This document shows, in pieces, positions 26,345 through 29,500 of a DNA stretch of 64,000 bases. The stretch comes from Candidatus Nitrosopelagicus brevis (GTDB taxonomy: Archaea > Thermoproteota > Nitrososphaeria > Nitrososphaerales > Nitrosopumilaceae): contig NZ_CP007026.1 in assembly GCF_000812185.1 (NCBI RefSeq), forward strand, positions 266,426 to 330,425. The letters run 5' to 3'. The notes under the pieces are model-generated. The model searched no databases, had not been told where the DNA came from, and saw nothing but the letters and a program-made list of their open reading frames with translations. The stretch's first letter is position 1; every line of letters begins with the position of its first letter. The translations under genes were made by a program, and so were the position numbers.

Positions 26345-27100
26345 ATGAGCTGGATTTACGATGCACACATTCATCTCTCAGATCCTGAATACAAATCTGA
26401 TATTGACATGATTCTAAATTACATGGATTTGTTAAAAATCAAAGCATGTTGCGTTTCAATGGATATTGAAACCTCCAACGAAACAATGGCTCTTTATGAA
26501 AAATCAAAAAATGTTTTACCTTTCATTGGGACTCATCCAGAAATGGCTCAAAAAAGTTCTGAACCTGTTTATGAACTGATTGAAAAAAATAATGAAATTA
26601 TTTCTGGAATTGGTGAAATTGGATTAGATAGAACCTATATCAATTCTGAAGATGAATGGAAAATCCAAAAAGATGTTTTTTCAAAACAACTATCATTAGC
26701 AGAGAAATTTAACAAACCTGTATCAATTCATTCAAGAAAGACATTATCTGATATTTTTGAAATATTACCTTCATACAAAATACCTGGAATTTTACTCCAT
26801 TGGTTTGATGGAAACAAATCTCAATTGAAAACCGCTATGGAAAATGAATATTTTGTATCATATGGTCCTCTGTTGGTTTATGCAAATGATAAACAAGTAC
26901 TGCTTTCAAAAACAGATCCATCTAGGCTTTTGATCGAAACTGACGGTCCTGTAAGATTCTCTCGTTGTTTTGAATACAAAACTACTGAAATCATGTTTGT
27001 GCCAAGTGTGCTATTTTGTGCTTCAAAAATTCTTCATACATCATATGAAAATTTACTCACACAAATTGAAGATAATTCGAAGAAATTTTTAGGAATTTGA
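26345..27100 (+). CDS. TatD-like metal-dependent hydrolase
   Basis: A 251-residue TIM-barrel hydrolase of the TatD family (3'-5' DNase or RNase in bacteria). Metal ligands are visible: DAHIHL at residues 6-11, GIGEIGLD with Glu, SIHSRKTL, LLHWFDG and ETDGP near residue 199. Its enzymatic target in archaea is not established. It is divergent from the histone gene and followed at short distance by eS17. Confidence 0.88.
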   Translation: MSWIYDAHIHLSDPEYKSDIDMILNYMDLLKIKACCVSMDIETSNETMALYEKSKNVLPFIGTHPEMAQKSSEPVYELIEKNNEIISGIGEIGLDRTYINSEDEWKIQKDVFSKQLSLAEKFNKPVSIHSRKTLSDIFEILPSYKIPGILLHWFDGNKSQLKTAMENEYFVSYGPLLVYANDKQVLLSKTDPSRLLIETDGPVRFSRCFEYKTTEIMFVPSVLFCASKILHTSYENLLTQIEDNSKKFLGI

Positions 27101-27137: not shown

Positions 27138-27560
27138 GTGGATAGAATAAAACGAATTTCAAATGAACTCATGAATGAATATTCTGAGCGTTTTGGAACT
27201 GATTTTGTAACCAACAAACAATCATTGAACGAAATCTCAATTGTCCGTTCAAAAGGACTCAAAAACAAAATTGCCGGTTACATCACCAAAATACTTCAAA
27301 GACAAGCAAAATTCGAAGAACGTAAACAAATGATTATTGATAATGAGAAGAAATCTCAAGAACGTAAACAATCAAGATCTAAAAAACCTGAAGTTGAATC
27401 AGAAGAAGATGCAGCATCTATTGAAATTGTTGATGGTGTAGAAGATCCTCATACAGATGAAGGAGTTAGACATGTCACTGAAGAACCAAGTTCTGAGACT
27501 GAAGTGTCTGAAGAAAAATCAATTGCTGAAGAAATCGTTGATGAATCAAAATCTGAATAA
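27138..27560 (+). CDS. rps17e: Ribosomal protein eS17 with acidic C-terminal tail
   Basis: Small-subunit protein found in archaea and eukaryotes. Residues 1-55 match S17e: DRIKRISNELMNEYSERF, then IRxKGLKNKIAGYIT-like sequence. After that, about 75 residues are highly charged: first Lys/Glu-rich coiled, then strongly acidic (VESEEDAASIE through EEIVDESKSE). Normal archaeal S17e is about 65 residues, so the tail more than doubles it. The tail resembles the acidic extension of uS11 in this window. Confidence 0.9.
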   Translation: MDRIKRISNELMNEYSERFGTDFVTNKQSLNEISIVRSKGLKNKIAGYITKILQRQAKFEERKQMIIDNEKKSQERKQSRSKKPEVESEEDAASIEIVDGVEDPHTDEGVRHVTEEPSSETEVSEEKSIAEEIVDESKSE

Positions 27561-27596: not shown

Positions 27597-28373
27597 ATGG
27601 TTACTGTTAATCTTGTAGGCGGTGCTCGAAAATCTTTTCAAACTGATTCTTTAGAAATAACTCAAAGTATAGATGATATCTCTGAATTACTTTCCCACCT
27701 TATTTCAAAAAAACCTGAAAATACCCCCGACTTTGATGGAAAAAATCTATTGATAGCTGTAAACGGAGTTGATTCTTCAGCCCTTGCTGGAATTGATACC
27801 AAACTAAAACAAAATGATGTTGTAAACATCATTCCAATCATTCATGGTGGGTCTACTGCAAAAACCAATGTATCATTAACAATAAAAAATAATTCGATTC
27901 GATTATTTGAGATCAATAAATCTAATTCAAATAAAGAGTATCTCTTATCATTACGAAAAAAATTCCCTAAATTACAACTACAAGCAATTTCATCAAAATT
28001 CATACTTGATAAAGAACACGCAAAAAAAATTATCACTATCTCTATAATTCAAAAATCAAATAATCATTTATTGTCTGATAAAATTGAAACTGATCTTTTA
28101 CTAAGATTTGGAAATACTACTCAAATTAATGAAGCGATAAAGAATGTTGGATTATCCCCAAATCAAAATTTCATTCTAATAGCACTAGGAAACAAATCTC
28201 ATCAAATTAAATTATTTGAATCAATTCGTGATGATTTAGATATAATTTTTAAGAAAAATAATCAAAATTTCCTTAAGAAACATTTCCAAATTTCAAATCA
28301 AACCTTAAACTCAATAGAATCTAAAACCCCTCTCGTTGATTTACTTGTTGAAAAGGCATCAATACTAATCTAA
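27597..28373 (+). CDS. Fusion of MoaD/ThiS-like domain and KEOPS subunit Cgi121
   Basis: A 258-residue two-domain protein. Residues 1-85 are a beta-grasp domain of the MoaD/ThiS kind: VTVNLVGGARKSF, later LLIAVNGVDSS and NDVVNIIPIIHGG, ending in Gly84-Gly85. Residues from about 100 match Cgi121/TPRKB of the KEOPS complex for t6A synthesis: LQAISSKFILDKEHA, then TDLLLRFGNTTQINEAIKNVG and FILIALG. The Gly-Gly is internal, so it is free for conjugation or thiocarboxylation only if the chain is cleaved after it. Neighbours are eS17 and, convergent, the THUMP and Sua5 genes. Its stop overlaps the THUMP gene by nine bases. Confidence 0.82.
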   Translation: MVTVNLVGGARKSFQTDSLEITQSIDDISELLSHLISKKPENTPDFDGKNLLIAVNGVDSSALAGIDTKLKQNDVVNIIPIIHGGSTAKTNVSLTIKNNSIRLFEINKSNSNKEYLLSLRKKFPKLQLQAISSKFILDKEHAKKIITISIIQKSNNHLLSDKIETDLLLRFGNTTQINEAIKNVGLSPNQNFILIALGNKSHQIKLFESIRDDLDIIFKKNNQNFLKKHFQISNQTLNSIESKTPLVDLLVEKASILI

Positions 28374-28886
28374 TTCTACTCGTTTTTCCCTATCGACACT
28401 TAGAATTGTATCTGGCGGAATAACACTAACTCCTGTCTTGTTTCTTAATATCTGAACAATAATTTCCCAATCTGAATTTTCTAATGACACTTTATTTGAT
28501 AACGAATCTGCAATATTGGAAATAATATCCTTAGTATGTAATGATGAATGTCGTTTTTCTACGGTAATTCTATAAGTTTCATTTTGTTTCATTACATTTG
28601 ACAATTCAACTGCCACATCTCTGATCTCCTCTAATTTTGTTTCACATTCTTTCTGAATAGGAATTATTCTTGAACAATATTTGATTAGCCATGGTTCATC
28701 TTCAATTATTTCTCTAAAATTATCTAAAACTTTGATATTGTCCAGAGATGTTTTGACCAGAATTATACCTGAAAATGGTGTTTTCTCAATTAATGCTTCT
28801 TTATCGCCAAACCGCTCTAGCATGTTTTGAGCTTCTAACATAGCTGGATCTTCAAGATTCCTTTGACAGGTGATAATCAAGTTCAT
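28365..28886 (-). CDS. THUMP-domain tRNA-modification protein (Tan1-like)
   Basis: A 173-residue protein with an N-terminal NLIITCQRNLEDPAMLEAQ stretch typical of archaeal Tan1-like proteins, and a C-terminal THUMP domain (ITVEKRHSSLHTKDIISNIA, then DWEIIVQILRNKTGVSVIPP). THUMP domains bind the tRNA 3' end and dock modification enzymes. Tan1 assists N4-acetylcytidine formation at position 12. It overlaps the Sua5 gene start by four bases, so the two are cotranscribed. Confidence 0.88.
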   Translation of the reverse strand: MNLIITCQRNLEDPAMLEAQNMLERFGDKEALIEKTPFSGIILVKTSLDNIKVLDNFREIIEDEPWLIKYCSRIIPIQKECETKLEEIRDVAVELSNVMKQNETYRITVEKRHSSLHTKDIISNIADSLSNKVSLENSDWEIIVQILRNKTGVSVIPPDTILSVDREKRVELD

Positions 28887-29500
28887 AGTATGTTCTCAAT
28901 CTCTTCTTTTGAAATAGATCCTTCTCTAATTATTTTTAATTCTCCATTGATAAAATCAATAATAGTTGATTCTCCTTCACTAACAATTGTTCCACCATCT
29001 ACCAATGTATTGACTTCTGGTAATTTTATTTTAAATTCATTTGAATCTAAAATTGATTTCTCACCTGAAATATTTGCACTTGTTCCAATAATTAATTTAC
29101 ATTGTTTTAAAATTGATAAAATGCATTTATTTCCTGGTACTCTTACAGCCAACTTTCCATTATTTTCTATCTTTTCAGATATTTCTTTTCTAATTGGAAG
29201 CAATAGTGTCACTTGCCCTGGCCAAAATTTTTCTGAAATCTTTTCTGCATCTGAATTGAACTCTACAATTTTTTCTAATTCGTCTTTTGATATTCCTAAA
29301 ATTGGAAATTTTTTTTCACCATCTCTTTTTTTTAATTCAAAAATTCTTGTTATACTATCTTTTTTGAATGGATCACATCCTATTCCATAAACCGTGTCTG
29401 TAGGAAATCCAATAATTTCCCCATTTTCATAAGATCTCATAATTTCATTAATTCCCTTCTCATCACACGGTACTACATTCATGATAAATCCAAGATTCAC
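28883..29500 (-). CDS. Threonylcarbamoyl-AMP synthase (Sua5/TsaC family)
   Basis: A 205-residue YrdC-domain protein that makes threonylcarbamoyl-AMP from threonine, bicarbonate and ATP, the first step of tRNA t6A37. Key segments are GEIIGFPTDTVYGIG, FWPGQVTLLLP, AVRVPG and IIGTSANISGEKS. It lacks the C-terminal Sua5 domain, so it is the short TsaC-like form. ATG codons at the first and seventh residues are both possible starts. It is upstream of the THUMP gene in an operon, with the Cgi121 fusion convergent. Confidence 0.94.
   Translation of the reverse strand: MNLGFIMNVVPCDEKGINEIMRSYENGEIIGFPTDTVYGIGCDPFKKDSITRIFELKKRDGEKKFPILGISKDELEKIVEFNSDAEKISEKFWPGQVTLLLPIRKEISEKIENNGKLAVRVPGNKCILSILKQCKLIIGTSANISGEKSILDSNEFKIKLPEVNTLVDGGTIVSEGESTIIDFINGELKIIREGSISKEEIENIL

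What the first reader, a model, noticed from the sequence alone, without database searches (positions are those of the whole stretch)
27597..28373. Ubiquitin-like (MoaD/ThiS) domain ending in Gly-Gly fused to KEOPS subunit Cgi121
Seen: a beta-grasp N-terminus that ends in HGG at residues 83-85, followed by a region that matches Cgi121. Established: MoaD/ThiS/SAMP proteins act through a C-terminal Gly-Gly, and Cgi121 binds tRNA and Bud32 in KEOPS for t6A. Inference: the fusion could release a small modifier by cleavage after Gly85, or use the beta-grasp fold as a docking module. Either would link sulfur transfer or protein tagging with t6A synthesis. I do not know of a described protein with this architecture.
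Basis: partly seen in the sequence, partly recalled or inferred. Interest (0 to 1): 0.83.

Follow-up and report, generated by a model that had tools for sequence, protein, structure and literature searches.

The report
Urm1-like modifier fused to KEOPS Cgi121
In a marine ammonia-oxidizing archaeon, the only gene for a ubiquitin-like tag of the Urm1 kind is joined end to end with a gene for a tRNA-modifying complex; the fusion was reported in 2010, but the perfectly preserved Gly-Gly at the joint, kept through several independent fusions, suggests that a protease cuts there to release the tag.

Summary
ORF 27597-28373 (+) encodes a ThiS/MoaD/Urm1-type beta-grasp domain ending in HGG (residues 83-85) followed by KEOPS Cgi121. 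It is not undescribed: Makarova and Koonin (2010) reported a Ubl-Cgi121 fusion in all thaumarchaeal genomes then available, co-transcribed with S17e.

New here: (1) Fusion is general in Nitrosopumilaceae, but most other families carry two adjacent genes, and there the Ubl ends in HGG-stop (33 of 44) or HGG plus 1-9 residues. (2) Internal HGG is kept in 87 of 88 unique fused proteins; in Nitrosopumilaceae H83, G84 and G85 show no change over 21 substitutions per site, while residue 86 changed 20 times. (3) Cgi121 fusions arose about four times, fusions to a phosphoribosyltransferase twice, and one Nitrosopumilaceae genome has re-split. (4) Thirty-six Nitrosopumilaceae genomes hold no detectable free Ubl: the only two are fused, to Cgi121 and to E1. 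All have JAMM-family proteases.

Best reading: an Urm1 precursor cut after Gly85, as in mycobacterial MoaX and Deinococcus MoaD-MoaE; the freed Urm1 then serves E1-dependent tagging or sulfur transfer. Cleavage itself is inferred, not shown. Docking without cleavage is the main rival.

The parts
27597..28373 (+). Urm1/MoaD-like Ubl - Cgi121 fusion gene, 258 aa
27597..27851 (+). beta-grasp Ubl domain, residues 1-85
   Evidence: Pfam ThiS 7e-9; Foldseek Urm1/SAMP1/MoaD; Pfam Urm1 matches orthologues
27843..27851 (+). H83-G84-G85, proposed cleavage after Gly85; invariant in Nitrosopumilaceae
   Evidence: lowest-confidence, probably flexible segment of the model is residues 82-87
27852..27866 (+). 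short variable linker, residues 86-90 (S86 is position +1 after GG)
   Evidence: position 86 changed 20 times on the tree
27867..28370 (+). Cgi121 domain, residues 91-258
   Evidence: NCBIfam NF011465, Pfam PF08617; Foldseek 4ww5, 8up5, 7kjt
27138..27560 (+). ribosomal protein S17e, 36 nt upstream, probably the same operon; long acidic C-terminal tail
   Evidence: Pfam Ribosomal_S17e 1.3e-18; conserved upstream neighbour
28883..29500 (-). Sua5/TsaC, makes the threonylcarbamoyl-AMP used by KEOPS; conserved neighbour
   Evidence: NCBIfam TIGR00057 over cut-off; synteny
28365..28886 (-). THUMP-domain protein, converging with and overlapping the end of the fusion gene
   Evidence: Pfam THUMP 2e-7; synteny
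26345..27100 (+). TatD-family nuclease upstream of S17e, part of the conserved gene order
   Evidence: Pfam TatD_DNase 7e-48; synteny

Best explanation
This is a precursor ('polyprotein') of two working proteins: an Urm1-like ubiquitin-like modifier/sulfur carrier and the KEOPS subunit Cgi121. Shown by sequence: an Urm1-type Ubl with a C-terminal-type HGG lies upstream of Cgi121 in a conserved t6A-linked gene block; the genes are separate in most related families and fused in Nitrosopumilaceae and a few other lineages, and the HGG stays invariant although it is now internal. Inferred: a protease, most likely one of the two JAMM/MPN+ (desampylase-like) proteins, cuts after Gly85; freed Urm1 is adenylated at Gly85 by the single ThiF-type E1 and used for protein tagging and/or tRNA thiolation with NcsA/TtuA, while Cgi121 joins KEOPS and presents the tRNA CCA end. 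The fusion itself is then a tolerated consequence of tight operon linkage, giving 1:1 supply of the two parts, rather than a new enzyme.
For: Internal HGG kept in 87 of 88 unique fused ORFs; both Gly codons use all four synonyms, so the amino acids are under selection. On a Nitrosopumilaceae tree of 21.2 substitutions per site, H83, G84 and G85 have no change while residue 86 has 20. Split homologues end exactly in HGG (33 of 44) or HGG plus 1-9 residues. About four origins of Ubl-Cgi121 fusion on the tree (6 state changes including one re-split); two Ubl-phosphoribosyltransferase fusions also keep HGG inside. G261, nested among fused relatives, has an in-frame TGA one codon after HGG. No free ThiS-family Ubl in 36 Nitrosopumilaceae genomes; Pfam Urm1 hits there lie only in this gene, and among the 14 control genomes only in Sulfolobus acidocaldarius. 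Every Nitrosopumilaceae genome searched has at least one JAMM-family protein, complete ones usually two; G000 has two with HxHx10D, one nearest to haloarchaeal desampylase. E1 in all Nitrosopumilaceae searched, NcsA-type thiolase matches in all genomes searched. Low model confidence only at residues 82-87. Precedents: MoaX cut between Gly82 and Ser83; JAMM DR0402 cuts MoaD-MoaE; Saccharolobus Urm1 ends in HGG and has 783 conjugation sites.
Against: No proteolysis, mass-spectrometry or genetic data could be consulted. One fused sequence (L040, a draft genome in another family) has lost GG, so a fused Ubl without GG can exist. JAMM proteins also occur in genomes with split genes, so their presence does not track fusion. 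Profile searches could miss a very divergent free Ubl. HvJAMM1 is reported not to need the GG for linear fusions, so GG conservation speaks for use of the freed C-terminus rather than for protease specificity.
Confidence: 0.72

Rival explanations
1. The Ubl is a permanent docking or regulatory domain of Cgi121 in KEOPS (for example binding Bud32, Kae1, E1 or tRNA) and is never released; GG is kept for structural reasons.
For: Fusion is general in Nitrosopumilaceae; the linker is only about 5 residues and the Cgi121 fold is intact. Gene linkage with Sua5 and Cgi121. One fused homologue lacks GG.
Against: The same HGG is the free C-terminus in split homologues. The constraint stops exactly at Gly85; residue 86 varies freely. 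The segment is the least ordered part of the model. The Ubl has also been fused to an unrelated partner, a phosphoribosyltransferase, and re-split once.
Confidence: 0.15
2. Urm1 regulates KEOPS: cleavage of the junction, or Urm1 conjugation to KEOPS subunits, controls t6A, coupling thiolation or proteasome tagging to t6A (close to the 2010 proposal of regulation by SAMPylation).
For: Linkage of HGG-Ubl, Cgi121 and Sua5 in many Thermoproteota families; proposal in PMC2948915.
Against: No direct evidence; linkage may reflect only a translation-related gene block (S17e, Sua5, THUMP); Urm1 in Saccharolobus has hundreds of targets.
Confidence: 0.1
3. Cgi121 is made separately by internal translation start, so the fusion ORF only looks obligatory.
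For: 41 of 87 fused genes have some start-type codon within 18 codons after GG.
Against: 46 of 87, including the window gene, have none; overlapping starts are seen only in split genes.
Confidence: 0.03

Closest known systems
Ubl-Cgi121 fusion of Thaumarchaea (Makarova and Koonin 2010, PMC2948915)
   Same: Same protein family, same fusion, same S17e linkage.
   Different: They stated conservation in all thaumarchaeal genomes then available; more genomes show it is not universal, arose several times, re-split once, and has invariant internal HGG. In the passages read they proposed regulation by SAMPylation or coordinated functioning, not precursor cleavage.
MoaX, fused MoaD-MoaE of Mycobacterium tuberculosis (PMC4326299), and Deinococcus MoaD-MoaE cut by JAMM DR0402 (PMC8832034)
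   Same: Beta-grasp Ubl with internal GG followed by its operon partner; cleavage directly after GG; MoaX has Ser at +1, also the commonest residue here.
   Different: The Ubl is Urm1-like, the partner is a KEOPS subunit, MoaE is absent from the 15 Nitrosopumilaceae tested, and cleavage is not demonstrated.
Archaeal Urm1 of Sulfolobales (PMC4569737, PMC12625751)
   Same: C-terminal HGG; Urm1 profile match; S17e linkage reported for Sulfolobales in the 2010 paper.
   Different: Free-standing there; fused to Cgi121 here.
Archaeal Cgi121 of KEOPS (PMC7718258)
   Same: Fold and family; expected to recruit tRNA by the CCA tail.
   Different: N-terminal Ubl extension.
Ubiquitin-ribosomal protein fusions of eukaryotes (own knowledge)
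   Same: Ubl made as a linear precursor with a translation-related partner and cut after GG.
   Different: Different Ubl family, partner and domain of life.

Membership tests
ThiS/MoaD/Urm1 beta-grasp Ubl | profile match and beta-grasp fold | tested here: met
   Pfam ThiS over cut-off; AlphaFold2 and Foldseek
ThiS/MoaD/Urm1 beta-grasp Ubl | C-terminal Gly-Gly available for adenylation by E1 | tested here: inconclusive
   GG is present and invariant but internal in the encoded protein; it is C-terminal in split homologues; cleavage not testable here
Urm1 rather than MoaD or ThiS | match to Urm1 models and HGG tail as in Sulfolobales Urm1 | tested here: inconclusive
   Window protein below the Pfam Urm1 cut-off (18.4 vs 21.8 bits); 21 of 32 genomes searched over it; HGG shared with Saccharolobus Urm1; no MoaE in 15 Nitrosopumilaceae
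Cgi121 (KEOPS) | profile over curated cut-off and Cgi121 fold | tested here: met
Cgi121 (KEOPS) | binding to Bud32 and to the tRNA CCA end | not testable with these tools
   needs biochemistry
Cleavable Ubl precursor (MoaX type) | internal GG at the domain junction under selection | tested here: met
Cleavable Ubl precursor (MoaX type) | candidate protease encoded | tested here: met
   JAMM-family proteins in every Nitrosopumilaceae genome searched; two with HxHx10D in G000
Cleavable Ubl precursor (MoaX type) | actual cleavage after the second Gly | not testable with these tools
   needs mass spectrometry or a cleavage assay

The most novel reading that the evidence does not exclude
Junction cleavage is a regulated switch: the cell controls release of Urm1 from Cgi121, so that t6A synthesis and Urm1-dependent tagging or thiolation are set together from one precursor, and all Ubl signalling in these archaea runs through cleaved fusions (Urm1-Cgi121 and Ubl-E1).
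Probability: 0.12. Interest if true: 0.85.

Novelty: new variant of a known kind. Interest (0 to 1): 0.55.

Why it matters
Ammonia-oxidizing archaea are very abundant, and on this evidence their only detectable Ubls (in Nitrosopumilaceae) are locked inside fusion proteins. That makes a sharp, testable prediction: Ubl processing, so far seen as a side branch of archaeal ubiquitin-like biology, would be obligatory here. It also gives a natural archaeal parallel to ubiquitin-ribosomal-protein precursors, and a concrete handle on the long-suspected tie between Ubl proteins and tRNA modification. The architecture alone is not new.

Tried and rejected
MoCo role: rejected for Nitrosopumilaceae because MoaE is missing in 15 of 15 tested. 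Sequencing or assembly artefact: rejected, the frame is intact across many genomes and genera. Fusion as the ancestral state of the phylum: not favoured, most outgroup families are split, although support is weak in places and five rows are on long branches. Simple JAMM-presence/fusion correlation: uninformative. Paper searches for thaumarchaeal Ubl or JAMM experiments found nothing relevant; a 2025 URM1 gene-shuffle paper mentions neither KEOPS nor fusions.

Full report
WHAT IS THERE. The ORF at 27597-28373 (+) is real and as described: 258 aa, with S17e 36 nt upstream and THUMP and Sua5 genes converging from the other strand. Residues 1-85 are a ThiS/MoaD/Urm1-type beta-grasp domain that matches to the last position of the ThiS profile at Gly85; residues from ~91 are Cgi121. 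AlphaFold2 from 24 orthologues gives pLDDT 89.6 with one stretch below 50, residues 82-87, the HGG junction; pTM 0.65 leaves the relative placement of the domains open. Foldseek returns Cgi121 from KEOPS structures, and Urm1, SAMP1 and MoaD for the first domain. The nearest named genomes are Candidatus Nitrosopelagicus.

PRIOR ART. [quoted passage not shown] They suggested regulation of KEOPS by SAMPylation or coordinated functioning.

DISTRIBUTION. In 61 relatives and 296 genomes of the class, listed full-length Nitrosopumilaceae matches are single open frames, except G261. In most other families the two parts are separate neighbouring genes, often overlapping. HGG-Ubl and Cgi121 also lie side by side in several families outside the class, within a block histone - TatD - S17e - Ubl - [phosphoribosyltransferase] - Cgi121 facing THUMP - Sua5. 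On a tree of 110 loci the fused state needs 6 changes: Nitrosopumilaceae, part of family f8 (g51), L040 and L188, plus a re-split in G261. In two further lineages (L046, L291) the Ubl is fused to the phosphoribosyltransferase instead, again with internal HGG.

THE GLY-GLY. 87 of 88 unique fused ORFs have HGG at the junction; the exception is L040, a draft genome. In 33 of 44 split homologues HGG is the exact C-terminus; 11 carry 1-9 more residues (my count). Codons for G84 and G85 use all four synonyms. For 81 Nitrosopumilaceae fusions (tree length 21.2), H83, G84 and G85 show no change, residue 86 shows 20, and the mean Ubl column 13.7. Residue 86 is Ser in 53 and Ala in 18 of 87. A Ubl that is never released has no evident reason to keep an E1-type tail while the next residue drifts.

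THE REST OF THE UBL MACHINERY. In 36 Nitrosopumilaceae genomes the ThiS profile finds, as a rule, two Ubls and never a free-standing one: this fusion, and a larger ORF that in G000 is a Ubl-ThiF (E1) fusion, again with internal GG (the larger frames in the genomes were not each opened). Pfam Urm1 finds only the Cgi121-fused Ubl, and among 14 control genomes only S. acidocaldarius. S. islandicus Urm1 ends in HGG and is a bona fide modifier. G000 has one E1, two JAMM proteins with HxHx10D motifs, one closest to haloarchaeal desampylase though below its cut-off, and an NcsA/TtuA-type thiolase; MoaE is absent from Nitrosopumilaceae.

MECHANISM. Shown: conserved junction, split ancestry, machinery present. 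Inferred from precedent: cleavage after Gly85. MoaX is cut between Gly82 and Ser83 and needs this for activity, and a JAMM protease cuts Deinococcus MoaD-MoaE. Inferred further: freed Urm1 is charged by E1 for tagging or thiolation, and Cgi121 enters KEOPS, where archaeal Cgi121 recruits tRNA by its CCA tail. A special regulatory tie to t6A is possible but not needed.

LIMITS. No cleavage data were available; the identity of the protease is a guess; a divergent free Ubl could be missed; several tree branches are weak and five rows are long. The novelty grade refers to the cleavable-precursor reading; the bare architecture is already known. The score reflects a known architecture with a newly sharpened and testable mechanism.

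Noticed in passing
L051:3950-5293 (G000:C1:~1068831-1070174, outside the window): The only other Ubl of this genome is fused to E1 (ThiS + ThiF) with internal VAGG, also kept in the related E1 fusions seen. Ubl-E1 fusion in Thaumarchaeota was mentioned in 2010; whether it too must be cut is open.
   Followed up: partly
L046:2775-3632, L291:2940-3872, L195:944-1549, L210:957-1559, L294:3113-3742: A phosphoribosyltransferase gene sits between Urm1-like Ubl and Cgi121 in several archaeal lineages and is fused to the Ubl in two; its role with Ubl or t6A genes is unexplained.
   Followed up: partly
L229 (G261, Nitrosopumilaceae): In-frame TGA one codon after HGG, followed directly by TTG: an apparent return to two genes within a fused clade.
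   Followed up: yes
L040:688-1611 (G050): Fused Ubl-Cgi121 in which HGG is replaced by HCS; either real loss or a draft-assembly error.
   Followed up: partly
window 27138-27560: S17e carries a long acidic, Glu/Ser-rich C-terminal extension (140 aa against about 67 in the NCBIfam model).
   Followed up: no
G123:C1:898634-898870 and 1706500-1706733: Ubl matches lie in unusually long open frames (814 and 419 aa) in this large Nitrosopumilaceae genome; not opened.
   Followed up: no
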